A stretch of 64,000 nucleotides of DNA, from contig CP126193.1 in the NCBI GenBank assembly GCA_030272155.1, positions 5,704,001-5,768,000 of the forward strand, read 5' to 3'. Below, one piece after another: positions 9,568 through 40,000 of this stretch. The number at the start of each line of letters is the position of its first letter. The stretch's first letter is position 1. Both the position numbers and the translations under genes were made by a program. Below the pieces are notes generated by a model. That model ran no database searches and was not told the DNA's origin. It saw only the letters and a list, made by a program, of their open reading frames with translations. Source of the DNA: Tetradesmus obliquus (taxonomy: Eukaryota; Chlorophyta; Chlorophyceae; Sphaeropleales; Scenedesmaceae).

Positions 9568-12500
9568 CTAATGCTCAAATGCCTCTACAGCAGCACCCAG
9601 TGTGCAGCTGCTGCCCCTGCACAGCGCCTCCCATGCAGTGCTGCCACCACCACTGCTGCCAGCTGCACCCGCCCTGCCCCTGCCTTCTAGTGCCTGCTGC
9701 AGCTGCTTGTGCAGCTCTCCCGCTGCTGCTGCCAGCTCGTCCCACTGCCTGAAGGGCTGCCAGGCTGTGCAGTTGTAGGTGGGATCAACAGGGTTGATGA
9801 TGGCAGGCCGGTACAGCAGTCCAGTGCCCCAGCACTGTGTTATTGCTGGCAGCAGCGCCTGCTGCTTGGTGTAATACAACTCAAGGATGATGGGCTCACC
9901 ATGCTGCTGCTGTTGCTGCTGCTGCTGCTGCCCTGGTGGATCGCTGCACCTGAGGCGCTGGGATGCAGCGTGCATCACATCCATGAACAGCTCAAGAGGC
10001 TGGCCTGGGTCATACACGCAGCCCTGCTGTGTCTGTTGCTCCAGTACGTACAGCACAAACACCTCCCACAGTTAGCCTGGGGGAGGCTTGGCATCGTCTG
10101 CTGCAGCACCAGCAGCTTTCAGCGCCACAGGAAGGCCGAACTTTGACCAGGCTTTGACCGCACGGATGACGTCAGTGACAAGCCGGCCGTACCCGTGGCG
10201 GCCGCGCTGCTTGTAGAGCTCGTTGACGCCTCTGATGACAGCTGTCTGCGACTCCGACAGGTCAGTGACGCGGCGCCTGCTGGCTGTGATGCGCTCGGGA
10301 TCTTCTGGAACCCGTGCTGCAAATGCTGTGTAATTTCCCAGCTCCACGTGTTCCCATTCCTCTGGGTATTGGTCACCCGGGTATACGTCAGGCTCTAGCT
10401 GGAGGTTAACACCAGTACTGCCTGCGCTGGCGCCTGCAGCAAGCTGTGTCCTCCTCCGCGCTTCTTCTGCCTTTGCTGCTGCTGACCTTGCTGTTGCTTT
10501 TGCTCCTGCTGTTTCTGCTGCCTCAAGCAGCGGCTGCAGCAGGTGCTGCCGCTGCTGCTCCTTTGTATCGGCGTGGTACTTGGCAACCTGCAGACAGCAC
10601 GGCATACGTTGCTGCTGCAAGATCTCTAAAAGATAGTGTCATCTGTGCGCAACGCCGCTCATGCAACCGCGTGACCCGAGCTACTGATGCTACTGCTAAG
10701 ATGACAGCTGCTATTGATATCTGCTGTCTTGCCATATGTGGTGCCAGCATGAAAAACCGATGATGAAACTCCGGCTGTTGACTACAGCAGGCTCACCTGG
10801 AGGTCCAGCTGCAGCTGCAGCTGCGGGTGATGCAGCCGCAGGAAGTGCTCCGAATGGCAAGCCTTCAGCCGCCAGCCTGCGCCAGCTGCCGTCATGATTG
10901 CTGCACTACTGGTGCCAGCAGCAGCAGCAGCAGCAGCAGCAGGAGCTGGCCTGCACAGCTGCTGCTGCACTGCTGCCAGCAGCTCCCTGCGGCAGCTGTC
11001 AAAGCATGCGCCCTCAAAGCACATCATCTTCAGCACCACGTCCAGGTCACCGCTGCAAAGGCATGCAGCAGTGCCGTGATGTGACGCAGGTAAGCGTCAG
11101 TATCCTCCAAGCACAACAGCTGGGCAGCGGCATGCATGTCAGCGTGCCAGCTTAGGCGCGTCTGCGCAGCTAGACTGCAGCATGGGTTGCGCAATACATG
11201 TGCTCTAGTAGTGTCGCACTTGGCACACTTGATGTATCTTTCAAGATAGGTGAATACCTGCAGTTTGAGATATATGGCCGAATGAGGAACATCATGTTAA
11301 AGGCATGCTACCATCAACAGTGCAACAGTGCTCACTTGCGCCTCAGGCCTGTCGACTTGACAAAAGAACCAGCTTTGTTCACACTCGCAACGTTCCAGCG
11401 CATGCCAGCATCCGGCGTGTCCAGCCGTATCTGCTCACACGTGCGGCTCACAGCATTTAGGGTTTGCTTCATGACCATTTTCTCTTGAGACGTTGGCCGC
11501 AGAGTGCTGATGAACACTCTGAAGCCCTCATGCATCTGGATGGCAGCTGCTCGCTGCCCTGCCTTGGTGCGGCCAGCTGCTGCTGCTTCTGCCGGTGTTT
11601 CTGCTGAGGGCTCTGGAGCTGGCAGGTTCTCCTCGGCTCTTGTTTCTGGCAGCTGCGCCAGCTGCACGAATGTGGGCCCCTCTGCATTGCCCTGTGAGCG
11701 ATCGATGCTGGTGGATTCACTGCTGCGGCAGCTGCTGGCAAGCACTTGTTTAATCCAAGGAGGCACCTGCTGCGCTGCACTGCTGGGGGTTGCTGCCAGA
11801 GGCTGCTGAAAGATTGGCCAGCCAGGAGGGCCTTTCTTTATCTTTCCATGCTCAAGCCTGCAGCATCACCCGCCAACGTGTTGATACAGACATGATATAA
11901 AAGAAGGCAGCACTTGCACACTAACAAGGGCAGGCAAATACACACTGTGCACTGTACATGTGCCATGCACCATCAGTAGGCGCATGCCATCAGCGCCTCG
12001 TGTGGGTTGTCATGACGAACATTGACCTTCTAGATGTGAAGGCGAGTTAAGGTGGCACCTGGCACTTGAAGCTACATTGGCCTCCAAAAACTTTTGAGCT
12101 GTGTGTGCTGCAATGCTGCAGCAGCCCTTGCCACTCTCAAAGTCCCGTGCTAGCTGTTGCACTGCAGTCCCCTCACGCGTTGTTTGCACCCCAGACCCAT
12201 CGCCAGCTGTCCAAACATGGTGAACGTGAGTTACACCAACACCCTCACAATCTGCTGAACCCCAAGCCCCTCACCAGCACATCTCCACGGGGTAGCTGAG
12301 GTAGCAGCCCTCCAGACTGCTGCTGTTGCCGGCCGCTGCTGCCGCTGCTGCTGCTGCTGCACCCGGGCGCAGCACACCAATGCACGGCAGCAGCGGCTGG
12401 CCCGCTGCGTCACACAGCAGCTCATCTGTGTTGTGGAGGTTCTTCAGCTGGATGTAGTCAAAGCAGCTGATGGGTTGCATGTCACCTGTTGGGGCTGGCC

Positions 12501-13224
12501 GCATGATCTGTGCTAGGCTGCGGGGGTCCAGGTAGGCTATGCTGTATCTGTTGACGCTGCTGCCAAGCTTGGTGCGCACCTGTAAGCAACAACAGTGTGA
12601 GCATGTCTTGAGTCTGAACAGCTGCTGGAAGGGCAGGCGGAGCAGGCCAGCCACTCTTGAATTGCTGCTGCTTTCTTGTCTACAGCCAGGGTGTTCAGGA
12701 GCAGCAGCAGCAGTTCCACTCATCGAGCTGCCATCTCCTGATAACGTGTCAGGCCGCAATACTTTGCTGCTGCCTGTTTGTGGTTGCAAAACTGTTGCCG
12801 TTGCTGCTGCATCAGCCACGCATGGCACCCCACCTTTACACCCCGCAGCTGCTCATTGAGCCACTTGTAGACCTGGTGACCCAGGACATTCTGCTGCAGG
12901 TTGGATGCATACATTAGCTGCATGGCATGCTGCTGCTGCTGCTGCTCCTGCAGGTCAAATATGATAAGGTCTTGCAGCCTCTCCTGCTGCAAGTAGTGCA
13001 GCAGCAGCAAGTAGTGCAGCAGCAGCAAGTAGTGCAGCAGCAGGTCCTGCATGTGGTGCACCAGCGGCTTGTGCTTGGTGTCGTGGAAATTGCGACAGAG
13101 AGCAGAAGCCGCATCTCTGCTGCTGCTGATGCCTGCTGCAGCTACACTTGCGCGCCTGCTGCCTATTAGTGATGGTAGTGCACGCCATGCCTTGGTCAGC
13201 TCTGGCTTGTGCGGGCTGACGCGC

Positions 13225-13296
<72 letters not shown>

Positions 13297-13391
13297 CTGC
13301 TACTGCTGACTAAGCACACTGCTGCTGGGCCGAGGCAGTGCCGCCTGGCACCGGCTCCCACACCAGGACATGTATGCTGTAGTGACCACAT
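9568..13391 (-). pseudogene. PAZ domain-OAS-like nucleotidyltransferase fusion, copy 1 (premature TAA)
   Basis: Five exons: 13391-12834, 12579-12275, 11857-11336, 11052-10797 and 10587-9568. Summed coding length stays in frame (887 codons). Exon 1 starts with a low-complexity poly-Ser region, then opens a PAZ-like domain (KHKPLVHHM helix, LRGVKV). Exon 2 continues it (Y.IAYLDPRS, CFDY, LPC.GVL) and exon 3 ends it (YPVEMCWLEHGKIKK). This order matches Argonaute PAZ domains ending in LPxEVCxIxxGQRxxKKL. The nucleotidyltransferase follows: an N-terminal helix, GSFVKSTGLRR, then across the splice NGDLDVVL (OAS GSxxKGTxLxxxxDxDLVVFL; the metal-binding Asp pair), a third Asp in LQLDLQ, and an OAS1_C-like domain with NPVDPTYNCT. 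The PPPGY motif of that domain reads PPPG-stop (TAA, 10074-10072, codon 719), cutting off about 168 residues. A proposed antiviral or RNA-sensing role is inference. Confidence 0.7.
13228..13294. repeat. CTG microsatellite coding poly-Ser in PAZ-OAS copy 1
   Basis: About 22 CTG units, read as AGC (Ser) on the minus strand, near the N-terminus of the copy 1 protein. The same position in copy 3 carries the tract at 19421-19500. Confidence 0.9.
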
Positions 13392-13800
13392 CTTCACGTC
13401 AAACAATGCACAATCGTGTCCGCGACTGAACGGTCATGAGGGGCACCAGCTTCACCAGCTCTGCAGGACCCCGCCACAAGGGACTGCGAAAACAGCAGCT
13501 ATACGTTTCAAGTGACGGAAATACTAGTCAACGTGAGCATTTGCAACTGTCAGACGAGGGTGGTTGTCTTGAAGCCTTGGACCAACGTAGAAGAGCGACG
13601 ATCCAGCTGCATTGTTGTGTTGGTGACACACAAAGCTGTACGTACGACGCTGCACAGATCCAGTTGAGTCGTTGCAAACGTGTTACTGGCGACGTGCATC
13701 GCTCGCAGCGCCAGCATGCCCCTAGCAGCAGCCTAGGATGCAGGCCAAGGATATGTTGCACTTCAAATCAAGTTGCCAGTGCTGCAACAGTCGCAACAAG
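13392..13800 (-). other. 5' flank of PAZ-OAS copy 1
   Basis: Homologous in inverted orientation to the flank of copy 3 (19100-19337). The two share a block at 13572-13608 and another next to the start codon at 13392-13442. No other gene is seen. The 3' end of copy 2 begins immediately to the right. Confidence 0.55.
13572..13608 (-). promoter_or_regulatory. Shared upstream block of PAZ-OAS genes (copy 1)
   Basis: Near-identical to 19115-19154 on the other strand, apart from small indels. Both sit about 180-220 bp upstream of the aligned start codons of copies 1 and 3. Candidate promoter element. Confidence 0.5.
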
Positions 13801-14164
13801 TCATGCTGCAGGACGATACAACATCAATTCACAGAAACACAGCAAATCTGCTACTGGTTGAAAGCCTCTACAGCAGCACCTAAATGTGCAGCTGCTGTCC
13901 CTGCACAGCGCCTCCCAAGCAGTGCTGCCACCTGCACCGCTGCCAGCTGCCCCATCTTGCAGTGCCTCCTTCAGCTGCTTGTGCAGGGCCCCTGCTGCTG
14001 CTGCCAGCTCGTCCCACTGCCTGAAGGGCTGCCAGGCTGTGCAGTTGTATGTGGGATCAACAGGGTTGGTGATGGCGGGCGTGTACAGCGGTCCAGCACC
14101 CCACAGATGCCTGAAGAGCAGCGCCTGCTGCTTGGTGTAGTACAGCTCTAAGATGATGGGCTCA

Positions 14165-14166
<2 letters not shown>

Positions 14167-14262
<96 letters not shown>
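14167..14262. repeat. (CTG)32 coding poly-Gln in PAZ-OAS copy 2
   Basis: Thirty-two perfect CTG units, read CAG (Gln) on the minus strand, in the OAS1_C-like domain. Copies 1 and 3 have shorter interrupted tracts at the same place, so length is evolving fast. Confidence 0.95.
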
Positions 14263-14263
<1 letters not shown>

Positions 14264-14400
14264 GTCGTCCCTGGCGGCCCGCTGCACCTGAGGAGCTGTG
14301 ATGCCGCCTGCATTACATCCATGAACAGCTCAACGGGCCGTGACTGGTCATACACGCGGCCCCGCTGCGTCTGCTGCTCCAGCACATACAGCACAAACAC

Positions 14401-14463
14401 GGGCGCGGTTGCCGATGCCGATGACAAGGTATGGCTTACAAGAACACTATTATTATTATTATT
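14401..14463 (+). mobile_element. 63-bp insertion with 11-bp target-site duplication and (ATT)n tail
   Basis: Aligning copy 2 with copies 1 and 3 shows 63 extra bp inside the conserved YLWEVFVL codons. The insert is flanked by exact 11-bp copies AGCACAAACAC (14390-14400 and 14464-14474); only one copy exists in the paralogues. On the plus strand the insert ends in five or six ATT units directly before the second copy. A microsatellite tail plus a target-site duplication is what a severely 5'-truncated non-LTR retrotransposon or SINE leaves. The parent family cannot be named from 63 bp. Confidence 0.7.
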
Positions 14464-15245
14464 AGCACAAACACCTCCCACAGGTAGCCGGGAGGAGGCT
14501 TGGCGTCATCTGCTGCAGTGCCAGCAGCGCGCAGCGCCACCGGCAAGCCAAACTTTGACCAAGCTTTGACCGCACGATTGACGTCAGTGACAAGCCGGCC
14601 ATACCCCTTGAACCCACGCTGCTTGTAAAACTCGTCAACGCCTGTGACGGCAGCTGCCTGCAACTGTGATAGGTCAGTCACATGGCGCCTGCTGGATCGC
14701 ACACGTCGTGGGCGCTGCAGGACTGCTGCTGCTGTTGGCCTGCCAGTATAGACGATCTCTTCACTGCTGTCAGAATCTGAGTCCAGGTCTGAAGGCAGCT
14801 TGCAGCCACCCGTGCGCACAGCATGCTGCGGCCTGCCTGCCCTCTCTGACACGGCTGCTGCTGCTGGTGCTGCATTGAGCAGGCGTTGCAGCAGGCACTG
14901 GCGCTGCTGCTCCTCTGTGTCACCATGATACTTGGCCACCTGCAGGCAGCATGGCATCCCATGTGCATGAGTCATCAAGTGATCATCATACTGCACACTT
15001 GCACCGCTGGTTATTGTTGTTGCAGGTGGCTGGCAGCTGCTGTAGCTGACAGCGGTACGTACTTCCGCGTTGCTACGCAGCAAAGGCATAGCAGGCAGGT
15101 GACAAAATCAACCGCCAAGCTGTTAATGCGCACCTGAATGTCAAGCTGCAGCTGCAGCCGAGGGTGATACAGTCGCAGGAAGTGCTGGCTGTGGCAAGAC
15201 CTCAGTGCCCACCCAGCGTCAGCGCTGGCGACTGCATCACTGCTG

Positions 15246-15287
<42 letters not shown>

Positions 15288-15921
15288 GGCTTGCATAGCT
15301 GCTGCTCCACTGCTGCCAGCAGCTCCCTGCGGCAGCTGTCAAAGCTGGCACCCTCAAAGCACATCAGCTTCAGCACCACGTCCAGGTCGCCACTGCAGAG
15401 GCATGCAGCAGGCGTCACAACCTGAGTTTCCACAGTTTCACAGACTTACAAAGTAGTGTCATCAACACTGTTGCGGAGCTGTCGGTAAACTTCCCTGAAC
15501 ATCGGGCAGCACGAGGTCTGCAAGCACATGTTTAGAATGTTGGAGACCATGCAGTGTCAACTGCTGTGTTTAGCAGCTGCCCAGCAGTCAAACTTGGTCG
15601 AACCTGGTCAACCACAGTCAAAGTGAGCCATAAATCCACCACGCACGCACTCACTTGCGCCTCAGGTTAGTAGACTTGGAGAAGCTGCCAGTCTTGAACG
15701 CATTTGTCACCTGCCACCGCATGCCAGCGCCAGGTGTCACCAGCCGTATCTGCTCACAAGCACAGCACACAGCATCCAGGGTTTGCCGCATGACTGCTCC
15801 TTCCTGCTGTGTTGGGTACAGAGATCTGACCAACCTCCTGAAGCCTTCATTCAGCTGCATGGCAGCAAACCCGCCATAAGCTGCGTTGAGGCTAGGCGCT
15901 GCTGGCGAGGTTGCAGCTGCC

Positions 15922-15959
<38 letters not shown>

Positions 15960-16218
15960 ATCAACAGGCGTCTGCAGCAGCCCCGGCATGCTTATGTTTG
16001 TCAGGCCTGCTGCTGCAGCTGCGTCTCGAGGGCTGCAGTTGCTGCTGCTGGAGCTGCGCTGGCCAGTGCCGGGCTGCGGGGCTGCTGCCTGGCTGCATGT
16101 GCCTGCAAACGATGCTCCTGCTCCTGCTGCTGCCTCTGATGCCGTCGCAGCACCTGCGTTGAAGCCACCACCCACCACCGGCAGCTCTGCAGCTGCTGGT
16201 GCCACACTGCAGCAGCAA

Positions 16219-16221
<3 letters not shown>

Positions 16222-16296
<75 letters not shown>
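16222..16296. repeat. (CTG)25 coding poly-Ser in the copy 2 linker
   Basis: Twenty-five perfect CTG units inside the large exon 3 of PAZ-OAS copy 2, read as AGC (Ser) on the minus strand. Confidence 0.9.
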
Positions 16297-16297
<1 letters not shown>

Positions 16298-16823
16298 GCT
16301 CGCCCAGCTCACCAGCAGTGTGCAGCACACCCGGTTGCTCAAACTGCAGAACTGTAGTGCCTGCAAGCTCAAGCCCTTCTGCAGCCGCTGCCAGCGCCGC
16401 TGCTGCAGCGCTTTGAGCATTCACACCAACGCCGCGCGCCTGCAAGCCCGCCAAACTCTGCACAGCAGCAGCTGCTGCTGTCCCAGACCACCCATTGGCA
16501 TCTACCACACAGCATGCGGCAGATGCTCCTGGGTCTGATGTGCCTGCCGGCGCCACAGCTGCTGCCGCAGCTGCTGCAGCAGTCACAGCTGCTGCTGCCA
16601 CATCTTCAGCCCAGCCAGCTTCTAGCATTGTATTGAATGCTGCTAATGCCGCAAACCACAGGGGTGGAGCTGCCCCTGCAATGTCTAGCGCTGGTTGCTG
16701 CTGGTGCTGCGCCTGTTTCCTGTGATGTTGCTGACCACAGCTTGTGCAGAGCTGTGACTGGGATGATGTGACACTGGTTGATACTGCTGCAGCAGAGCGT
16801 GTTGCTGCGGGTGCACTGCAGCG

Positions 16824-16872
<49 letters not shown>

Positions 16873-17410
16873 CCAGTGTGCTGCAGCAGTATGTTGACGG
16901 CTGGAAGGGTCGCAGCAGCAGTGGCAGCAGCAGCATGTGGGCATGTGTCGCTACAATCTTTGCCAGCTGCTATTGTTTGCGTGTGCATGACTGGTGCTGT
17001 GAGGCTGACAGCTGCTGCTGGCTGGAGCCCAACTGGAAGTACAGCAGCAGCTGCTGCTGCTGTTGGCATGTGCAGAGACAGCTGTGAAAATGTTGCTGCA
17101 GCCTCAGCAGCTGCTGCTGGCAATGCTGCCGCAGCTGATGGTGGTTGTGTGGCTGCCAATAACGCTGCTGGCGCAGGTGCAATCAGCGCCGCTGCTGCTG
17201 CTGCTGCTGTGGCCGTTCCTCCTGTTACAGCTCGTCCTGTCGGAGCTGTCATGCGCGCGAGTGTCGCTGCTGCTGCTGTGGCAACTGGCGCTGCTGTAAC
17301 TGCTGTCACTTCCTGCTCTCCAGCAGGAGCTTCAACAGCCGCCGCTCTTCTTGCTGCTGCTGCTCCTGCTGCTGCTGCTCTTTCTTGCTCTGCTGCTGTT
17401 TGGGGCTCAC

Positions 17411-17444
<34 letters not shown>

Positions 17445-17559
17445 TATTACGTCTTCGATGCAGGCTGGCACTTTGGCTAAGCCACCACGGCACTTCTTGG
17501 CCTTGCCATCTACCAGCCTGCAGCAGCAGCAGAAGCGTGGCATGCTGACATAGCTCATT

Positions 17560-17650
17560 GTTGATAAGTGTTCCAGCATGCCTGCGCGATTGCAGCATTG
17601 TTGATAAGTGTTCCAGCATGCCTGCGCGAATGCTGTTCTGCAGCATTGGT
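17560..17650. repeat. Tandem direct repeat in intron 2 of PAZ-OAS copy 2
   Basis: Two copies of a roughly 38-44 bp unit (beginning GTTGATAAGTGTTCCAGC) lie side by side in the intron before exon 3. Confidence 0.8.
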
Positions 17651-18881
17651 GAGCAGAACTGCAGCCTAGGCGGTGCATGGCTTCTCTGCTGCAGCGTAAG
17701 CCTGCAGCTGTATAAGCTCGCCTACAGCGGAAGCAAGAAGCCACTGAGAAAATCAGTCTGCTTAGATGTGGCTCGCATGTCAAAGCAGAGGCATACCCAT
17801 CTTCCTTCCTCTTCTCTTATCTCTTTCTCTTATCCCTCTGTCTCCAATCTCGTTACGCAAGGACGTGTCACACAGTTGATCTTTTCTGTTGTCGGTGGTG
17901 CCTGCTGCACATGTAACGTCACCAGCAATGCCACAAACCAACTCACTTGCAGGCCTCAACAGGGTAGCTGAGGTAGAGCCGCCGGGCATCATCGCTGCTG
18001 CCACCCGCTGCTGCTGCTGCCACTGCTGCTGCTGCAGCAGCAGCAGCATCAACACGCGGGCGCAGCACGCCAATGCATGGCAGCCGCGGCTGGCCCGCTG
18101 CATTGAGAGTCAGCTGCCGCTCGCTGCCAGTGTACTTCCGCTTGTTGTATTTGAAGCAGCTGATGGCCTGGAGGCCACCTGTTGCGTCTGGCAGCAGCAT
18201 GATGTCTGCTGGGCTGCGCGGGTCAAGGTAAGCTATGCTCCAAGTGTGGCAGCTGCTGCCAAGCTCGGTGCGCACCTGCAGACACACCAGCCCCAGCAGC
18301 ATGTTGACTTGCACAGCATGCTGTCTCTACAGTGCCAGATGTACGCATACTGCTAATTGATCTCTACTCCAGGCAGGTTGCAAGCAGGCCGATGCTACAG
18401 CATGCGTTTTATCCTCTATGGCAGCTTGGCCAGCAGCTGCCTGTGATGTGAGACGCAGACAGTGCAACTGCTGCAGACAGCAGCACGCATTTGAGAATAC
18501 AGCCATGCATGCTTTGCAAGCTGGAAAGATTGTGCAAGCTCAGCATGGCGTTTGCCTTATTGCAAGGCACACAAGACATATGCAGATTGTCGCACTCGCA
18601 CGCATGTGCTGGTTAATGCAGGTGGAGCGCATGGTGTCGTACGTATTTGTGCCTGCATGCTGTTGTGGCCTCACCAACAGGCCTGCCAGCTGGCTGTGCA
18701 GCCACCTGTACACGTGTGGGTACTGCAGCAGGCTGGATGCATGCAGCAGCTCAGTCAGCTGCTGCTGCTGCTGTTCTGGGTCTGGGCAAAGGGCTTCAGG
18801 ATCGTGTTGCTGCAGGTAAGCTAGCAGGAGCTCACACATGTACTGCACCAGCGGTTTGTGCTTGCTGGTTCCTGAGTTCAT

Positions 18882-19337
18882 GGCTGACGTGTTTTCTTGG
18901 CCGGCAACGGGGCTTAGAGTGTGGTTGCTGTCACCATGGCTGCTGCTGGAGTTGCTGCATAGACATGCACACTAGGCTGCTGCTGGTGCCTGCTGCTGGC
19001 GCTGCTGCTGGTGCTGTGGATTGTCACGTTCCCCTGGCCAACGTTTTGTAATCAGTTATAATTGCAAGTTAGCAGCACGTTATGCCCTGCTACTATGGAG
19101 CATTGCACAGAAGAAGCTGGATCGCCGCTCTTCTACGGCGTTGGTCCAAGGCTTGAAGGCGACTGCCATCGCCGGCCAGCCGTACATGCCCTCCTGAACT
19201 GATTATCGCATGACAATAAATGCATAGCGTTTGAAGTCGTGCATCCTTGTGCGTAGTCGTGCAGTGCTAGTCCCAAGCTGGTTCCACTCATGAACGTTTA
19301 CTTGCGGACACGACCTGCAAGTTTGACGTGACCGTCG
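18882..19337. other. Divergent intergenic region between PAZ-OAS copies 2 and 3
   Basis: The two genes point away from each other. The part near copy 3 carries the shared family promoter blocks (19115-19154 and 19287-19337). I found no second set pointing toward copy 2, so copy 2 either shares this promoter or has lost its 5' end. Confidence 0.5.
19115..19154 (+). promoter_or_regulatory. Shared upstream block of PAZ-OAS genes (copy 3)
   Basis: Matches 13572-13608 in reverse orientation. It lies about 185-220 bp before the copy 3 start codon. A second shared stretch, 19287-19337, runs up to the ATG and matches 13392-13442. Confidence 0.5.
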
Positions 19338-19420
19338 ATGTTGCCCTCGATATATACATACTCTGCTGCGGGATCATGTGCCAGGCTGTGCAACCTCGGC
19401 CCAGCAGCAGTGTGCTCAGT

Positions 19421-19501
<81 letters not shown>

Positions 19502-20083
19502 GAGCAGCAGACCCTATATGCCACAGCTGATCACAACACAGCGTGCAGCATCATTAATCAGCAGCAAGCGCACAAGCGTAGTTGCAGCAGGCATCGTGAG
19601 CAGTAAAGATGCTGTTTTTGCTCGTTTTTGTCAAGGCAGCAGCAAACACAAGCCTCTGGTACAGCACATGCAGGAGCTGGTGAAGCAGTACCTGCAGGAA
19701 AAAGGGTTGCTTGATGCCATCAGTGAGGCCGAACAAGAGCAGCATATCATGCAGCTACTACATGCGTCCATCCTGCAACAGAAACAGAACGAGGATCTAT
19801 ACTTCTGGCTCTACCAGCAGTTGCAGGGCCTCAAGGTGGGTGCGCAATGCAATGCCGTTCACCCTGGGCGATGGCACTACCCCTGCAGCTGGCATCATCA
19901 TCACCAAACCCATCAAGCTATAGGAATAACGGCATCGGTGCCGTGCGCCACTGGAGCGGCAAAACAGACCCACAGCAGCTGGCATTTAACAACCTGTGAA
20001 GCAGAGCACCAGGGCCCTGATGCAGCGATGGCAGCACGCTGTGTTGTTGCTGCTGCTGGTGCTGGTGCTGGTGCTGGTGCTGG

Positions 20084-20118
<35 letters not shown>

Positions 20119-23100
20119 TGGTGAACCCCCTGGCAGCGAACTCTGGGAGGCGCGATCGGCCTCCATCCCTTTGATCTGCACGTAGCTTCCCAATACTGCA
20201 ACCGTTTCTTGCTGCCACGTTGCTGCTGGCAGGTGCGCACTGTGCTTGGCAGCAGCGTCCACAACTACAGCATAGCGTTCCTGGACCCCCGCAGCCCAGC
20301 GTTCATCATGGCAGACCCACTAGACAACACGGGCAAGACCAGCTGCTTTGACTACAACAAGCTGAATTACCCTGGCAGCACAGATGATCTGCTCCTTGAT
20401 GCAGCAGGACAGCCGCTGCTGCCGTGCATTGGTGTGCTGCGCCCGGGTGCAGCAGCAGCAGCAGCGGCAGCAGCAGCGGCCGGCAACAGCGGCAGTCTGG
20501 AGGGCTGCTACCTCAGCTACCCTGTGGAGGTGTGCTGGTGAGGGGCCTGGGGTTCAGCAGATTGTGAGGGTCTTGGGGTTGAGCAGATTGTCAGGGTCTT
20601 GGAGTTCAGCCGCTGGTGAGAGCGGGAGGGTGCAGCGGCTGCCAAACCGTGTAATGGATAACACGTACCATCCGGTGTTGTGAACCCTGCTGCACAGGAC
20701 CTGTTAAGATTACACAGGTCATACGGCACAGAATGAGTTGTGCATGTCTGCGCATGCAGCAAAATGCATGCTGGGACCTGGGCAAGGGCAGCGACGCAGT
20801 GCGGACCTGTACGCCAGTCACCTTGTTGACATGTGTGCATAGGTCCTGGCGTGCCCTGCGCTCGCGGCAGATGCACAATCTAGCTTATTCCAAGGCATAT
20901 ACAGTCTAGGCATGTCAACTGCTGCTGCTGCTGCAGGCTGAAGCGTGGCAGGGTCAAAAAGGGCGATCCTGGCTGGCCACTGCTTAATCTGGCTGCAGCA
21001 GCACCCCCCGCAGTGCAGCAGGTGCCCTCATGGATTCGAGACGTGCTTGCCGGCAGCAGCAGCTGCTGCAGCACTGACAGGGCAAGCAATGAGGGCTCAC
21101 AGGGCAATGCAGTGGCGGCGCCAGCTCTGCAGCTTCCACAAACAGACGCAGATGAGGAGATGACGATGCTACCAGAGCCTGCAGCAACAGCAACAGCAGC
21201 AGCAGCAGCAGCTGACCGCGCAGGTGCAGCGCAGCGAGCAGCTGCCATCCAGATGCATGAGGGCTTCAGAGTGTTCATCAGCACTCTGCTGCCAACACAG
21301 GAGGAAAAGGATGGCATGGGTGCGCTCTAGATGCTGTGAGCCGTGCCTGTGAGCAGATACGGCTGGAGACGCCTGACGCTGGCTTGCGCTGGAACGTTGC
21401 GAATGTGATCAGAGCTGGTTCTTTTGACAAGGCAACACGCCTGAGGGGAAAGTGAGTGCACGGCTGGTGGTGGTAGACACTTGGTTGTCTTCAAGCAGCT
21501 GACAGTGATGGTAGCTTTGGATGTGGTTTGACCATGTTTTAACATCCGACTCACACACAATTGTTGACGTAAGCATTCAATGTATCGAGTGTGACGCCAA
21601 AAGATGTTACAAGGCAGCGTATGTGAATGTACTCCACCCTGCAACTTGGCTGCGCACACCTTACTCAGGCGGGCGCTTCAACTCATCATGTCCCCAAATG
21701 CTGTTCTATTGCCATACTTACGCTGGCTGAGTCATTGCATTGTGCGGCACCGGCCTGCAGTGGTGACCTGGACGTGCTGCTGAAGCTGATGTGCAGCGGG
21801 GCCGCCAGCTTTGACTGCTGCCGCGGGGAGGTGCTGGAGGCAGTGCGGCAGCAGCTATGCAGGCCTGCTGCTGCTGCTGCTTGTGGTGGTGGTGGTGCAG
21901 CTGACAGCGCTGGAGCAGGCTGGCAGCTGCAGGAATGCTATGCAGACAACTATCTGCGGCTGCACCACCCGCAGCTACAGCTGCAGTTGGACGTCCAGGT
22001 GCGCCTGCAGCCAACTGCTGAGGGGTTTGTCACCGCATGCGCAATGTTCACACCCAACACAGCTAGGGTGTCAGCTTGTCAAGGACAGCAGAACTTCACA
22101 CAAGCGCTAGCAGCAGCACCACAGGGTTGACAACCAGCGACAGACTTGTGCGACTGTCATCAAGGACAAAAGCTATCTTGCTAGCAGCTAGCAGTATCAA
22201 ACTCAATGACATGCTGCCTGCAGGTTGCCAAGTATCATGGTGACACAGAGGAGCAGCAGCGCCAGTGCGTTCTGCAGCAGCTGCTAGATGCAGCAGCAGC
22301 AGCGGTCCTGCCAGGTCCAGATTTCTTTGAGGCCAGCGGGCGCCGTGTCATGGACCTGTCAGAGTCCCAATCTGCGGTCATCAAAGGCGTGAACGTGCGG
22401 TACAGGCAGCGCGGCTATGAAGGCTATGGCCGGCTTGTCACTGACGTCATTCGTGCGGTCAAAGCCTGGTCAAAGTTTGGCCTGCCGGTGGCGCTGCGGC
22501 GGGAGCAGCAGCGGCAGGAGCAGCAGCAGCATGATGGCAAGGATACTACACCTCTGGACCAGGAGCCGCAAACGGCGCAGCAGCAGCTGCGCGCTGCAGG
22601 TGCTGCCGCAGACACTGTAAAGCTTCCCCCAAACTACCTGTGGGAGGTGTTTGTGCTGTATGTGCTGGAGCAGCAGACGCAGCGGGGCTGTAGGTATGAC
22701 CAGTCCCGGCCTCTTGAGCTGTTCATGGATGTGATGCAAGCGGCACCACAGCTCCTCAGGTGCAGCGGGCCGCCAGGGACGACCCAGCAGGCGGCTGATC
22801 CTCAGCAGCAGCAGCAGCAGCAGCAGCAGGAGCAGCAGCAGCAGGAGCAGCAGGAGCCCATCATCTTAGAGCTGTACTACACCAAGCAGCAGGCACTGCT
22901 CTTCAGGCATCTGTGGGGTGAAGGGCCGCTGTACCGGCCCTTCATCATCAACCCTGTGGACCCCACCTACAACTGCACCAGGTTTCAGCTCTTCAGGCAG
23001 TGGGACGAGCTGGCAGCAGCAGCAGGGGCCCTGCACAAGCAGCTGAAGGAGGCACTGCAGGGCAGGGACAGGGCAGGGGCAGCTGGCAGCACTGCATGGG

Positions 23101-23162
23101 AGGTGCTGTGCGGGGACAGCAGCTGCACACTGGGTGCTGCTGTGGAGGCATTCAGGCAGTAG
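19338..23162 (+). CDS. PAZ domain-OAS-like nucleotidyltransferase fusion, copy 3 (one 1-nt frameshift)
   Basis: Five exons: 19338-19835, 20233-20537, 20937-21451, 21761-21998 and 22224-23162 (about 832 codons). The ATG aligns with that of copy 1. The PAZ-like domain spans roughly residues 100-280: KHKPLVQHM helix, LQGLKV, YSIAFLDPRSPA, CFDYNKLNYPG, LPC.GVL, an Ala-rich insert, then YPVEVCWLKRGRVKK. The nucleotidyltransferase core has EGFRVFIST, GSFDKATRLRG, NGDLDVLL (DxD metal site) and a third Asp in LQLDVQ. The C-terminal part has YGRLVTDV, KLPPNYLWEVFVLYVLEQ and NPVDPTYNCT with a WDELA helix, as in OAS1_C. Coding length is one base short of 3n before exon 5, and the reading frame breaks between EEKDGM and DAVSRACEQ near 21318-21330. 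This is a 1-nt deletion relative to both paralogues, or a sequencing error. Likely reaction by family: 2'-5' or cyclic oligonucleotide synthesis from NTPs; unproven. Confidence 0.72.
19421..19500. repeat. (CAG)26 coding poly-Ser in PAZ-OAS copy 3
   Basis: About 26 CAG units read in the AGC (Ser) frame close to the N-terminus. Confidence 0.9.
20543..20610. repeat. Short tandem repeat at the start of intron 2, PAZ-OAS copy 3
   Basis: A 27-28 bp unit containing TTGGGGTTGAGCAGATTG is repeated about 2.5 times just after the exon 2 donor. Copy 1 has a single unit at the same place. Confidence 0.7.
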
Positions 23163-34017: not shown

Positions 34018-37000
34018 TCACACTGCTGCGCGAGAGCACACTGCGCAGTTGACAGGACACCGCAGCACCTGCTGCAGACTAGGATGCCCGCCCGCCAACT
34101 CATCAAGCAGCTCATGCAGCTCTGCTGCTCCTCCCACACCGCCAAACTCTGCAGGGTGTGCACTCACAGCTGCTGCCAAGCCACCGCCGCTGCCGCTCCT
34201 GCTGCTGCTGCCACTCCCCATGCCGCCGCCAGCTGCAGGGTTTGTCACAAGGCTGCTGCTGCTGCTGCTGCCACCATTGCCACTGCCGCTGTCAGCTTTA
34301 GGGCCAGTCAGCACATGCTGCACATCCAGCTTGGTCAGTGCAGGGCACGCCACCGCTGCCCGCAGCATGCCATACATCGGCAGCGCACGGCACGCCTGCA
34401 GGTGCAGCGTCAGCAGCAGCGGGCAGCGCAGCTCCAGCACCCGCAGGTAGCTGCAGCTGCTCACATCCAGATGTGCCAGATTCGGCAGCGCCAGAGCCAC
34501 CACCTGCACACCTGACAGCCCTGCCCTCAAGCTAGTCAGGCCTGAGACAGCGCTCGGCACTTCAACCCAGTCATAGCTCGCCTGCCGCGCATGCAGCGAG
34601 GCACGGTCGCCACTGAGCAGGTAGTGCTTCGGCTGCAGCACCTCAACCTGCCCTGAAGCGGGCAGCAGGCCCAAGCAGAGGCTCTTCAAATGGCTGCAGC
34701 GCACCAGGCTCAAAGACTGCAGCGCACTCCCGCTGCTACTGCTGCTGCCACCTGGCAGCAGCTGCAGCGCTGACTCAGCACCAGCAGGCGCCAGGTGGCC
34801 CTGTGCTGCTGCCAGCTGCGCCAGCTGCTCTGACTCCAGCTGCCTCCACAGCGCATCTGTCACAGCAGCGCAGCCGTTCAGCGCCAGGTGCTGCAGCCTT
34901 CCGCAGCGGCTCAGCAGCTGCGGCACAAGGCCCTCATCTAGCTGGCAGTAACTAACATCTAGTGAGGCCAGCTGCGGCAGCGCAGGGCTGCCAGCTGCCA
35001 GCAGCGGTGCCAGCGCATCCGCCGCCAAGCTGCCACATGAGCTGAGGCTGAGTGTGCGCAGCTGCGGACAGCTGGCAAACACCGGCCGCAGATCTGAGAC
35101 CTCGGTATACGAAAGGTCCAGCTCTTGTAACGTCGAAAGCGCCGACAGCGCCTGCAGGCCGCTGCTGCCGACCTGGCAGCACACAGACAGTACCAGCTGC
35201 GTCAGCGGCGGCGCGTTTGCAACTGCTGAGGCCACGCCTGCATCGCCGAGTTCGCTGCAGAAGGTTGCGTCCATGCTGTGTAGGCCTGGGCAGTCCAGCA
35301 GCAGCTGTGTGAGCTGCCCACAGCCCCGCAGGTCCAGCTTGTGCAGGCTGCTGCTGCTGAGCTCCAGGCCGGTCAGGCCGCTGCAGCCGCCCAGGGAGAG
35401 GCTGGGCAAGCCAACCTGGGGCAAGGCGGGAGGGGAAAGGCAGCAAGAGGAGGCAGCAGCAGCAGCGCAGAGGGAGATAGTGCTGTTCGATTGGCTAAAA
35501 GCTACGAGAGGAGCAGGCGGACGGAAAGTACACGCACACAAAGTGGCTAGGGTTGAATGTCTGACGCAGCACGCAAGGCCTCAGACAGTGTTGAGCCTTA
35601 CGCAACTACCAGCCAATCTGCCTCAGCCCCGCTCTTACATCAGCTTATCTCCCACCCACACACACCCAACCACCACCACCACCAAAACCGCCACTTCCAA
35701 AACCCTAAGCCCTCACCTGCTGCAGGCTCACTGCTGCCAGGTCAGCCACCTCATCCAGCTCCAGTGCAGCCAAGCTTGGCGCAGACACCACCAGCTGCCC
35801 CAAGCTGCGGCAGCCGCTCACACACAGCGTCTGCAGCCGGCTGTGCTTCAAGCTCAGCCGCCGCAGGCCGTCGCAGCCCTCCACGCGCAGGACACGCAGC
35901 GCAGGCACGCCGCCACCGCCGCCGCCAGCCGCAGCAGGCGGCCTCGGCGGCTGGATAGGCATAGGAGGGCCGCCGCCGCCGCCACCACCACCACCACCGC
36001 GGCCGCCGCCGCCGCCTAGCCCGCCAGGACCAAAGCCGCCGACAAGGAAGGCTGCTGCAGCAGGTGCTACTGCTGCTGCTGCACCTGAGCGGCCAGTTGG
36101 GTGCGCCACATGCGCGTGCTGCGGTCCTGCACTGCCGGCTGAGGCGGCAGCATACATGCTGGCCCCCTGCCTGCGACTGACCTGTGGAGGCGCAGCGCTT
36201 GCTGTTGCTGCTGCGCTGCTGCTGCCAGCAGCTGCGCTGCTGCCCCAGGTTGGCAGCCTCAGCAGCGACATGAGCCCCCCACCTAGTGCACGGCCACTCC
36301 TGCTGCTGCTTGCTCCGGCAGCTGGCGCCTGCGGCTGCTGCTGCTGCTGCTGCTGCCTGTTGCTCACTGGCTGCATTTCAGCTGCGGCCTGGCACCGCCT
36401 AGGAAGTGCCCGCTGCCGGGTTGTTGCCCTGTTTGTGCTGCGCATTGCATACCAGCGCTGCTGCGGCCGCTGCTCCTCTTCCTCCATTGCTGCTGGGCCT
36501 TCGTCAATAGCCATGACTGCCACTGCATCATCAACATGGCCGTCAAACGCTGCTGCTGCTGCTGCCTCCTGCAGGTTGCCCTGCGGTGCTGCAGCAGCTG
36601 CTGCTGCTGCTGCTGGTGCTGCTGCTGCTGACGGCTGCTCATCGTCATCAGCTGCTGCCAGCCACGTTGCTATACCCGCATCCTCAGCGTCAGCATCATC
36701 CTCATCAACAGCAGCAGCAGCAGCACCTGCCGCGCCTTCTGCCATCGCCACATCCTCCTCCTGTTCAACCTCAACATCCGCATTGCCCCATGCAGCAGCG
36801 TCAAGCACACGCAGCATGCGCAGGCTATCCGCATCCTCCTCACCCAGCCTCCTCCTGGCTCTGCTAGGTGGCGCAGGCCAAGCTGCTGCTCCCCGCAGTA
36901 CCTGAAGCCTGCTGCGGCTGCTGCCAGGACCAGCAGCAGCAGGGGCTGCGGCAGCTGCCGGCCTTCCAGAGGAGCTGCCAGCCAAAGCAGACGGCCCTGC

Positions 37001-40000
37001 AGCTGCTGCTGCTGCAGCAGCAGAGAATGACGCCTGCTGATGTTGAGGGCTCCTGCTGCTTGGCCCGGCAGCAGCTGCCGCCCTGCTGCTAGAAGCCAAT
37101 GGCAGCCGCGGCTCAGCTGCAGCGCTGCCGGGAGCAGGCCCTGCCCATGTGCGCTGCCCAGCACCGCGCAGACGCTCAGCTGCCGATGCTGTCGATGCTG
37201 CTGCTCCACTGCTGCTGCTGGGGCCTGGCCCGCTGACAGTAGTGGCCCTGTGGCGCCGAGCAGCAGTGCGGCGCGGCTCCCACAGCATTGCATCATCACT
37301 GCCTGCCAGCTCAACAAAGTCAAACACTAGGCCAGCGTCTGCAGCTGCAGCAGCAGCAGCTGCGTTGCTGCGCCGTGCAGCAGCGCCGCGGCTGCTGCCC
37401 GCAGCTGCACCTGCTGCAGCTGCTGCAGCAGCACCTGCACTGCCTCTGCTGCCCATGCCTGCGCCGGTTCCCCTCGGCTGCCGCCTTCCTGCAAGCAGCC
37501 TGTCCATGGTCCTAGCTGCTCCTGTAAGGCCTCCTGCAGCCGGCCCACCGCCCATGTCATCGTCGTCATCGCTGTCGTTTCCTGCAAGCCCTAAACCCAG
37601 GCCAAACCCTGGCAGCAGGCCGTCGCCGTAGCGATGAGGCATGCCAGCCTCGTCATCCTCATCCATTTCTAACGCTCCTGCAAACAATGCCACGTCAGCA
37701 TCTGCCTCATCCTGCAAGGCCCGCCACAAGCCCGCCTGCTGCTGCTGCAGCCGGTGCTGCTGCTGATGCAACGAGCCACCCCACACCCCCGGCGCTCCTG
37801 CTGCGCCTAGCCCGGACACAGCTGCAGCATCTGCTGCAGCGCCTGACGTTCCCGCAAGCAGACCAGGTGCTGCTGCTGGTGGTGCTCCTTTGTCTCCCAG
37901 GGCCTCTAGTGCTGCTGGTGTGATGTTGTCACACTCCCGGATGGTCAGCTCTGTCAGGTAAGGGCAGTTGAGCTCTAAGTGGGACAGCTTCCTGCAAGCA
38001 GCAGCACAGCCAACCACCATAAAAGGGTGAGTGGCAGCAGCCAGAAGAACCAGTACCCGACATGCACACTGTCCATACACAGCAGTGAACAAACGCATAC
38101 ATGTGAGAGCTGCATACTGCACGCAGCAAGCTGCACCGAAACATGAATATATATCCCACTACCGCCACCAGCAGCAGCAGTAGCAACACACCGCAGAAGC
38201 CCCCATCCGCGTACCACGCCGCACCCCAGCCAGTTTTCCCACCTGCACTGCACCCACTCCATGCGCCGCAGCGCCCCACTGTTCAGCGCCAGCCGCTGCA
38301 GGGTGCTGTTGCCAGGCGAGCCGCTTTGAATGGGCCCTAGGCGCAGCGTGGCCAGGCGCCAGCAGTTGAGGTCCAGGTCGCTGAGCGCGACACAGCCGCG
38401 CAGGGAGATTTCCTGCAAGCGAGGAACGCAGGTTTGTGGCGCAGAACAGTGTGAGTCGGCAAGCTTAAAACATAATAAATTGAGAAAAGAAGATGCAGAG
38501 CCGTGTGCATGGCAAAGAGAGTGAGAGAGAGAAAGAAGCAATGCCTAAGCACGCACAACCTTGTTTACCGATCCATCCATCACGCAAACTAGCAGCAGGC
38601 GCCCTACCTTCAGGTGTGGCATCGTCAGCTTGAGCGTGGTCAGCATGTGGCAGCCGTCCAGCAGCAGCTCCTCAAGCTGCTCGCAGCTCTCAGCAGCAGG
38701 CTGCAGCGCAGCAGGTGTAAGGCTCTCGCAGCGGCTCAAGTCAAGCAGCCGCAGAGATGGGAAGTCCCGCACGTTGCTCAGGGACAGGCCAGGCGTATCT
38801 GACAGCACCAGCTTGGTCAACACAGTCAGGGAGGATGCCATCTGTGCGAGGGCACGAAACAGAGACGTGCAGGAAGGCATAAAAACACGTGAGGGGTGTG
38901 AGGCAGGCAGTAGTATGTGAGCCGTTGGTTGAGCATACGCAACATATATTTGCAGCTATAACACGCTGAAACCACGAAGAAGGCAGCAGCATCGGCACAG
39001 CCCGTGTCCATGCCGACATACACCAGAAAGTCAAACATCAGTCAAACGTCGGGCAAACGCACCTCGCGCACAGTGTCGTCCGTGACAGGCACGCCCTGGC
39101 CCATGGTCAACTCCTGCAAGCCGGTCAAACCTGGCAGCGCTGCGCGGATGCTGCTGTCCTGCAGCTTCTTGCAGCCCCGCACATCAAGGCTAACAAGGGC
39201 AGGGCATGCCGCAAGGCCAGGCAGCCTCTGGATGTTGCTGCTGGCCAGGCTGAGGCGCTGCAGGCTGCTGCAGCGCAGGCTGCCGACTAGCGCATCGCTG
39301 CCTGTGAGCAGCAGGCTGGTGAGGCCGGGGTGGCTGATGGCGCAGCTGGCGGTGGGCAGCCCTGCAACAGCATGCGACAGGATGGCGGGAAGGCATGAGT
39401 ATAACACCAAGGCCGATGCTTAGGCAGCACAAGCAAGATAGATATCCTAGTGCTGAGCGCATGCTTTGGTGTTCTCGGCTCTTCCGTTTGTGGGTTTCTT
39501 TGCTGATGGTCAACGCCTGCAAACACCTTGCATCAAGCAATCTAATACTGCTCAGCCGTACTTGGCAAGCGCTGCCTGCGCTCATCTCACCTGACACCAG
39601 CATGCCATGCAGGCTGAGCACGCGCAGCGCAGGAAGCTTGCTGGACAGCACCCCCAGCACGCGCTCCATGGTGTGCTGGTCTGTCACGCTGTGCTTGCTG
39701 CAAAAGCGCAGCTCGGTCAGCTGCTGCAGGCATGGCGCGATGCGCGCGAGCAGGTTGGGGTCGCTGAGGCCGCATGTGAGCCCCGAGAGGTCCAGCAGCT
39801 GCACGCAGCGGTGGCGCCACAGCAACGCTGACACCTGCGTTTGTAGTGATATGAGTGGGCGGAGCAGCAAGACAGATGTTGGTTGTGTGTGCCGTGGGTG
39901 GTGTTGGCGTTGTGGAAGCAGTGGTATGCAGCATGCCTGCTGCGCAGCGCAACAAGAGGGTAGCCTATGACCAGCAGCATGACCAGTGTGTGGTAGCATC

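What the first reader, a model, noticed from the sequence alone, without database searches (positions are those of the whole stretch)
9568..23162. PAZ domain fused to an OAS/cGAS-type nucleotidyltransferase, in a three-gene cluster
Seen: all three copies have, in order, landmarks that line up with a full PAZ domain (KHKPLV..M helix, LKV, Y.IA.LDPRSPA, CF.YN, LPC.GVL, YPVE.C followed by a basic G-K/R-K segment) and with a full OAS-type enzyme (GSF.K.T.LR, then NGDLDVVL across an intron, a third Asp, PP.YLWEVFVLYVLEQ, NPVDPTYNCT, WDELA). Known: PAZ binds 3' ends of small RNAs in Argonaute and Dicer; OAS/cGAS enzymes turn RNA or DNA sensing into nucleotide second messengers in innate immunity. 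Inference: a one-protein link between small-RNA or 3'-end recognition and nucleotide signalling, perhaps antiviral or anti-transposon. I know of no described PAZ-OAS fusion.
Basis: partly seen in the sequence, partly recalled or inferred. Interest (0 to 1): 0.95.

Follow-up and report, generated by a model that had tools for sequence, protein, structure and literature searches.

The report
Argonaute PAZ domain fused to OAS-type enzyme
A green alga carries a small gene family in which an RNA-end-binding PAZ domain, apparently taken from an Argonaute gene, is joined to an enzyme resembling the OAS immune enzymes that make nucleotide signals; the three copies in this window look broken, but a fourth copy elsewhere in the genome is intact and a relative exists in another alga.

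Summary
Three related five-exon genes (A, B minus strand; C plus strand) encode a PAZ-like domain followed by an OAS/CD-NTase-type enzyme. All three are disrupted. A fourth copy, D (C1:6587138-6591344, 1018 aa), has the same exons and intron phases, is open throughout and keeps GSF...DLD...QLD. A Scenedesmus protein, P0001, carries the second half of the PAZ core plus the whole enzyme; P0002 is a partial relative.

Enzyme: 10 of 10 solved-structure hits of an enzyme-only profile are OAS, NF45 or CD-NTase, best 3.4e-6. PAZ: 27 of 28 hits of a PAZ-only profile are Argonautes, best 2.6e-4; two other PAZ alignments did worse. Strongest for PAZ is gene structure: its core exon starts (phase 0) and ends (phase 2) at matching places in A-D and in this genome's three Argonaute loci.

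Structure prediction did not confirm the PAZ fold. Function is inferred: an RNA-3'-end-gated nucleotidyltransferase, most likely a sensor making a nucleotide signal; an RNA-tailing enzyme remains possible. My searches found no described PAZ-OAS fusion.

The parts
12834..13391 (-). Copy A exon 1: polySer leader, then N-terminal PAZ helices (KHKPLV..., WLNEQLRGVK|); start codon is a guess
12275..12579 (-). Copy A exon 2: PAZ core (VRTKLG...LPCIGVL...YPVEMC), starts phase 0, ends phase 2
11336..11857 (-). Copy A exon 3: end of PAZ (LEHGKIKKG), linker, start of nucleotidyltransferase (GSFVKSTGLRR)
10797..11052 (-). Copy A exon 4: catalytic GDLDVVL and third Asp (QLD)
9568..10587 (-). Copy A exon 5: OAS-type C-terminal helical domain (PPP..LWEVFVLYVLEQ, NPVDPTYNCT, WDELA); in-frame stop at 10072-10074
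18675..18881 (-). Copy B exon 1: N-terminal PAZ helices (start codon is a guess)
17947..18275 (-). Copy B exon 2: PAZ core
15655..17517 (-). Copy B exon 3: end of PAZ, about 500-residue low-complexity linker, GSFSKSTNLRR
15134..15392 (-). Copy B exon 4: catalytic GDLDVVL and QLD
13851..14939 (-). Copy B exon 5: OAS-type C-terminal domain, interrupted by a 74-base insertion (14474-14401) and a frame slip near 13885
19338..19835 (+). Copy C exon 1: polySer leader and N-terminal PAZ helices (WLYQQLQGLK|); start codon is a guess
20233..20537 (+). Copy C exon 2: PAZ core
20937..21451 (+). Copy C exon 3: end of PAZ, linker, GSFDKATRLRG; frame slip at about 21315-21330
21761..21998 (+). Copy C exon 4: catalytic GDLDVLL and QLD
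22224..23162 (+). Copy C exon 5: OAS-type C-terminal domain, open to its stop

Best explanation
This is a small chlorophyte gene family, PAZ-OAS. SHOWN (sequence): one gene encodes, in order, a low-complexity leader, a domain with the sequence marks and exon boundaries of an Argonaute PAZ, a low-complexity linker, and a nucleotidyltransferase of the OAS/CD-NTase type with its catalytic residues and C-terminal helical part. INFERRED (evolution): the PAZ core exon was copied from an Argonaute gene and placed in front of an OAS-type gene in an ancestor of Scenedesmus-like algae; the family then went through duplication and loss, leaving one intact copy (D) and three broken ones (A, B, C). INFERRED (mechanism): the PAZ binds the 3' end of an RNA, for example the 2-nt overhang of a Dicer product or a small RNA, and that occupancy gates the fused enzyme, which makes a nucleotide product (2'-5' oligonucleotide or related signal) as an antiviral or anti-transposon response. 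Rough probabilities: fused architecture real 0.9; active nucleotidyltransferase in D 0.75; RNA-gated nucleotide signal 0.45.
Against: PAZ scores stay under Pfam's curated cut-off (20.6 vs 28.8 bits); PAZ pieces of B and C alone hit nothing (A's was not scanned by itself). Exon 2 of C as query found A, B and C but not D in the own genome at E <= 0.001. Profile A5 (with copy B and the exon-1 helices) found no Argonaute in the PDB; D+P0001 alone reached Argonaute only at E 0.41, 1 of 6 hits; D's PAZ piece as single query found none. AGO-a against the five sequences is weak, z 2.4-3.2, and AGO-c vs P0001 is 1.5. Structure prediction of the PAZ exon failed (pLDDT 54.3; no PDB match); Foldseek on P0001 gave nothing at E <= 0.001, and its VIA row 15, an unrelated protein, ties with row 14. 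OAS1_C is only E 0.077 in D's enzyme part. The best NCBIfam match of P0001 is archaeal CCA tRNA nucleotidyltransferase, E 1.3e-5 but 24 bits against a cut-off of 281, which leaves RNA tailing open. No RNase L-like effector was found: the one KEN-domain match looks like IRE1; the STING search was empty with empty controls. No transcript, protein or activity data.
Confidence: 0.6

Rival explanations
1. RNA-tailing enzyme: the PAZ holds the 3' end of a small RNA and the fused enzyme adds nucleotides to that same end (3'-5' or 2'-5'), marking small RNAs for decay or protection, with no diffusible messenger.
For: PAZ would deliver exactly the substrate such an enzyme needs (established knowledge of PAZ). 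P0001's best NCBIfam match is the archaeal CCA-adding enzyme at E 1.3e-5; D's enzyme part also touches PF22600 MTPAP-like palm at E 0.0055.
Against: No terminal uridylyl- or poly(A)-polymerase among the 10 PDB hits of the enzyme profile; all are OAS, NF45 or CD-NTase, and the C-terminal half carries OAS-type landmarks (PPxYxWE, NPVDPTxNC). The CCA match is far under its cut-off and covers 84 of 410 positions.
Confidence: 0.25
2. Catalytically idle binder: like OASL or NF45, the enzyme part is a scaffold and the protein works by RNA binding alone.
For: A weak match to DZF_N (E 0.0032 in P0001), the family of NF45/NF90, which are not active enzymes (recalled). NF45/NF90 are among the closest folds.
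Against: GS, both Asp of DLD and the third Asp are invariant in D, P0001, A and C.
Confidence: 0.15
3. The whole family is decaying in this alga and has no present role there; it is interesting only as a fossil fusion.
For: Three of the four copies found are disrupted, each differently.
Against: D is open over 1018 codons with intact splice sites; the Scenedesmus relative is retained; exons 4-5 of A-C show constraint, dN/dS 0.35. Indel lesions could also be assembly errors; the stop in A is less likely to be one.
Confidence: 0.12
4. The PAZ call is a chance resemblance; the N-terminal region is some other small domain.
For: Sub-threshold scores, dependence on the alignment used (vs 85), failed structure prediction.
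Against: Two exon boundaries with the same position and phase as in the Argonautes of the same genome, shuffle z up to 10.1, 27 of 28 PDB hits.
Confidence: 0.07

Closest known systems
OAS superfamily of CD-NTases (2'-5' oligoadenylate synthetases and OAS-like proteins across eukaryotes)
   Same: GS...DxD...D active site, co-linear N-terminal, PPxY and (N/D)PxDPTxN segments, helical C-terminal part; best solved-structure matches
   Different: Carries an Argonaute-type PAZ in front; low-complexity linkers; OAS1_C profile score below cut-off; no RNase L-type partner seen
Argonaute PAZ domain (human AGO1 PAZ, and AGO-a, AGO-b, AGO-c of the same genome)
   Same: Order of elements from the [K/R]G.K|V segment through the invariant Tyr and LPC.xV to YPLE.C; same exon boundaries and phases
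   Different: No Piwi match in the protein or at these loci. Of the recalled 3'-end pocket positions, the His of VTHC and the Phe of HQTF in AGO1 are not kept, whereas the aromatic positions of KYR and QYF are (read by eye from the alignment; residue roles recalled, from no call)
Bacterial CBASS CD-NTases (CdnC, CdnE)
   Same: Catalytic core by profile and C-terminal helical fold
   Different: Eukaryotic gene with introns and a PAZ in front; matches are weak and cover only the core

Membership tests
PAZ domain (PF02170) | Profile match over the curated cut-off | tested here: not met
   PAZ piece of D 20.6 bits, E 4.5e-4, cut-off 28.8; whole D 16.3 bits; P0001 14.5 bits; pieces of B and C none. 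AGO-c's own PAZ core exon also scores only 26.2 when taken alone
PAZ domain (PF02170) | Family profile finds Argonaute PAZ among solved structures | tested here: met
   27 of 28 hits at E <= 10 are Argonautes, best 2.6e-4, many near-identical AGO2 entries; alignment-dependent: none, best 0.41
PAZ domain (PF02170) | Gene structure shared with Argonaute PAZ exons | tested here: met
   Same phase-0 start and phase-2 end of the core exon in A-D and AGO-b; AGO-a and AGO-c: acceptor and end, phase-0 donors at VKGMR| and VKGAK|, picked by eye
PAZ domain (PF02170) | PAZ fold | tested here: inconclusive
   Exon-2 model pLDDT 54.3, no match; N-terminal part of P0001 almost wholly under pLDDT 50
PAZ domain (PF02170) | Binds RNA 3' ends | not testable with these tools
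   No binding data
OAS superfamily (CD-NTase) | GS motif and three catalytic Asp | tested here: met
   Invariant in D, P0001, A, C; also present in B
OAS superfamily (CD-NTase) | OAS1_C (PF10421) over cut-off | tested here: not met
   Enzyme part of D 13.0 bits, E 0.077, cut-off 19.9
OAS superfamily (CD-NTase) | Closest solved sequences and folds are OAS/CD-NTase | tested here: met
OAS superfamily (CD-NTase) | RNA-dependent synthesis of 2'-5' oligonucleotides | not testable with these tools
   No biochemistry
Argonaute | Piwi domain in the same gene | tested here: not met
   No Piwi match in D; the 9 Piwi matches of the genome lie at three other loci
CCA-adding or terminal nucleotidyltransferase | Full-length family match over cut-off | tested here: not met
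   TIGR03671 24.2 bits against 281.3, 84 of 410 positions; PF22600 17.2 against 27

The most novel reading that the evidence does not exclude
Green algae have built a new immune receptor type by exon shuffling: an Argonaute PAZ that reads the 3' end of Dicer-type duplexes or small RNAs switches on a fused OAS-type enzyme, so that RNA interference products directly trigger a nucleotide second messenger.
Probability: 0.35. Interest if true: 0.93.

Novelty: new variant of a known kind. Interest (0 to 1): 0.8.

Why it matters
RNA interference and OAS/cGAS signalling are two great nucleic-acid-based defences of eukaryotes and are usually treated as separate. A single protein that joins the RNA-end-binding module of the first with the enzyme of the second would show that they can be wired together, and would give a green-algal OAS-type receptor with a ready hypothesis for its ligand. 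The intact copy and the Scenedesmus relative make it directly testable. It also documents domain capture through matching intron phases.

Tried and rejected
Family searches of the whole genome with PF02170 and PF10421, exon by exon, did not pick up the copies: single exons are short and divergent; the PF10421 search had no ringing control and shows nothing. SMODS (PF18144) gave nothing, with two ringing controls; STING (PF15009) gave nothing, with none. The KEN-domain gene was considered as a possible RNase L and set aside: around it lie a PQQ-like part, a transmembrane stretch and a kinase, as in IRE1 (read from ORFs by eye). Scans of IMG/VR and GTDB with A1 gave 35 and 68 pattern matches, none confirmed. 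The third protein search, P0001 residues 155-402, found only P0001 itself among 4693 candidates; the first two scored 7993 and 7994 candidates, a capped list, so relatives in other algae may be missed. Single-sequence PDB searches of D gave no Argonaute and only OASL at E 0.71. One search listed 13 matches; besides the three copies and D there are two weak ones (C10, C6; E 3.4e-4 and 9.4e-4, each with a stop) in the Gln-rich stretch, not followed. P0002's only NCBIfam match (E 0.037) lies in its terminal poly-Cys and is taken as chance. A profile control on the Argonaute loci (A5, 404 ORFs) gave no significant hit. The 74-base insertion in B was examined as a possible intron: no GT...AG pair that keeps the frame was seen by eye. 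Organism: a search for a matching published assembly led nowhere; I take it for a chlorophyte near Scenedesmus only because P0001 is the nearest protein.

Papers: searches. Passages were seen of PMC10732462, PMC9262622 and PMC7955037; all others are search listings only. 'No described PAZ-OAS fusion' rests on the listings (20 of 59 papers listed; 1 of 1; 1 of 1; 1 of 1; 15 of 46; 12 of 72), in an open-licence library.
Full report
WHAT IS THERE. The window lies in a 104.7 Mb genome of 17 contigs. Between 9568 and 23162 there are three related genes: A and B on the minus strand in tandem, C on the plus strand, head to head with B. Each has five exons. Exon 1 carries a low-complexity leader (A, C) and helices ending in a motif such as WLNEQLRGVK; exon 2 the segment V...LDPRS...LPC.GVL...YPVE.C; exon 3 a basic segment, a linker and GSF.K.T.LR; exon 4 GDLDV.L and, at its end, QLD.Q; exon 5 the C-terminal part with PPxYLWEVFVLYVLEQ, NPVDPTYNCT and WDELA.

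ALL THREE WINDOW COPIES ARE DISRUPTED, each differently: a stop in exon 5 of A; a 74-base insertion flanked by an 11-base direct repeat, and a later frame slip, in exon 5 of B; a frame slip in exon 3 of C. Assembly error cannot be excluded for the slips.

A FOURTH COPY IS INTACT. A search of the own genome with exon 5 of C found a relative on contig C1, 42% identical over query residues 77-304. Reading around it gave copy D, C1:6587138-6591344: five exons, introns GT...AG, phases 0/2/2/0 as in A and B and, past its slip, C; 1018 codons without a stop. Its PAZ part reads more like an Argonaute than those of B and C: it alone of the pieces scanned reaches PF02170. Exon 2 of C did not find D's exon 2 at E <= 0.001, so the PAZ parts have diverged far.

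RELATIVES ELSEWHERE. Three searches of 5.8 billion proteins found two: P0001, 'hypothetical protein COO60DRAFT_6714 [Scenedesmus sp. NREL 46B-D3]', 626 aa, E 6e-176, and P0002, 341 aa from a JGI metagenome, E 1.1e-102, without a PAZ part. P0001 holds the second half of the PAZ core and the whole enzyme in one predicted protein. Its first residues read like the wrong frame of the PAZ exon (compare D's other frame), so its model probably starts too late. Gene models of that genome were chosen on homology and transcriptome support (PMC7955037, passages); whether this model had transcripts I do not know. Nothing was confirmed in the viral or prokaryote collections.

THE PAZ, BY PROFILE. PAZ piece of D 4.5e-4 on PF02170, whole D 0.0096; P0001 0.034; pieces of B and C nothing. 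The four-row profile A1 (D, P0001, A, C) hits 22 solved sequences at E <= 10: 11 Argonautes, 7 OAS, 2 CD-NTases, 2 NF45. A PAZ-only profile of the same four hits 28, of which 27 are Argonautes, best 2.6e-4; many of these are near-identical AGO2 entries. Two other alignments did worse: with copy B and the exon-1 helices (A5) no Argonaute; D plus P0001 alone, best Argonaute 0.41, 1 of 6 hits. On 404 ORFs of the three Argonaute loci, A5 gave nothing significant, but its first and third ORFs (E 0.15, 0.28) are the PAZ exons of AGO-b and AGO-c. The fold could not be confirmed.

THE PAZ, BY GENE STRUCTURE. This genome has three Argonaute loci with PAZ and Piwi matches. In AGO-b the PAZ core exon starts after QQLKGVK at V, phase 0, and ends after YPLELC plus two bases, phase 2. 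A, B, C and D have the same two boundaries and phases, with similar exon-1 tails (WLNEQLRGVK, WLHSQLAGLL, WLYQQLQGLK, YLNEQLQSIR). AGO-a and AGO-c share the acceptor at V and the phase-2 end, and have phase-0 donors at DTVKGMR| and RDVKGAK|; these two donors were chosen by eye from lists of GT sites, so they are likely rather than proven. Shuffle tests on these exons, which share both ends by construction: AGO-b vs D z 10.1, P0001 8.2, A, B, C 5.6-7.3; AGO-c vs C 7.0, A 5.1, D 4.5, B 3.9, P0001 1.5; AGO-a vs all five 2.4-3.2; for comparison AGO-c vs AGO-b 5.3 and vs AGO-a 6.6. AGO-c also has the LDPR motif of the copies. I conclude that the PAZ is homologous to Argonaute PAZ and was probably acquired with its flanking introns.

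SELECTION. Over the codons shared by A, B and C outside low-complexity runs, dN/dS is 0.35 (0.26-0.48) in 222 codons of exons 4-5 and 0.85 (0.50-1.45) in 77 codons of exon 2; the difference was <= 0 in 7 of 2000 bootstraps. Exons 1 and 3 were not used; the last few codons of B lie behind its slip and can only raise the enzyme value. So the copies were probably under constraint for much of their history, and the PAZ changes faster. That fits an arms-race sensor, but also a relaxed PAZ.

HOW IT MOST LIKELY WORKS. Shown: one gene, two parts, catalytic residues kept in D and P0001. From established knowledge: PAZ binds RNA 3' ends (PMC9262622, passages); OAS makes 2',5'-oligoadenylates that activate RNase L, and OAS-like genes occur in 8 of 12 eukaryotic supergroups (PMC10732462, passages). 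Inferred: 3'-end binding gates the enzyme and the product is a signal in defence. The effector is unknown; the only KEN-domain match looks like IRE1.

NOVELTY. My searches found no description of such a fusion (the longer listings were seen only in part). The parts are known, the combination is not known to me: a new variant of a known kind. If the signalling reading proved true it would be a new receptor type.

Noticed in passing
window 14401-14474: 74-base insertion in exon 5 of copy B with an AAT repeat and an 11-base direct repeat (GTGTTTGTGCT) at its ends, looking like a small element with target duplication.
   Followed up: partly
window 15655-17517: Exon 3 of copy B keeps an open frame of about 620 codons, most of it Ala/Ser/Gln-rich linker, where A, C and D have about 130-175 codons.
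   Followed up: no
L022, L023, L024 (C10 and C1): Three Argonaute loci; the PAZ core exon is bounded at the same phase-2 end in all three and by a (likely) phase-0 start, and AGO-c carries the LDPR motif of the PAZ-OAS copies.
   Followed up: yes
L030 (C3:5285500-5295400): Single KEN-domain match with PQQ-like, transmembrane and kinase parts upstream, probably IRE1 (read by eye).
   Followed up: partly
window 48703-49689 (-) and 34018-38158 (-): An ORF ending in a MYND-type zinc finger, and long leucine-rich-repeat ORFs with extreme Ala runs (recognised by eye).
   Followed up: no
P0001 residues 1-24: The deposited Scenedesmus gene model seems to start in the wrong frame of the PAZ exon, so the public protein lacks the first half of its PAZ.
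   Followed up: partly
L014 (C10:4622113-4622274) and L016 (C6:1356581-1356754): Two weak matches to the Gln-rich stretch of exon 5, each with a stop; probably low complexity.
   Followed up: no
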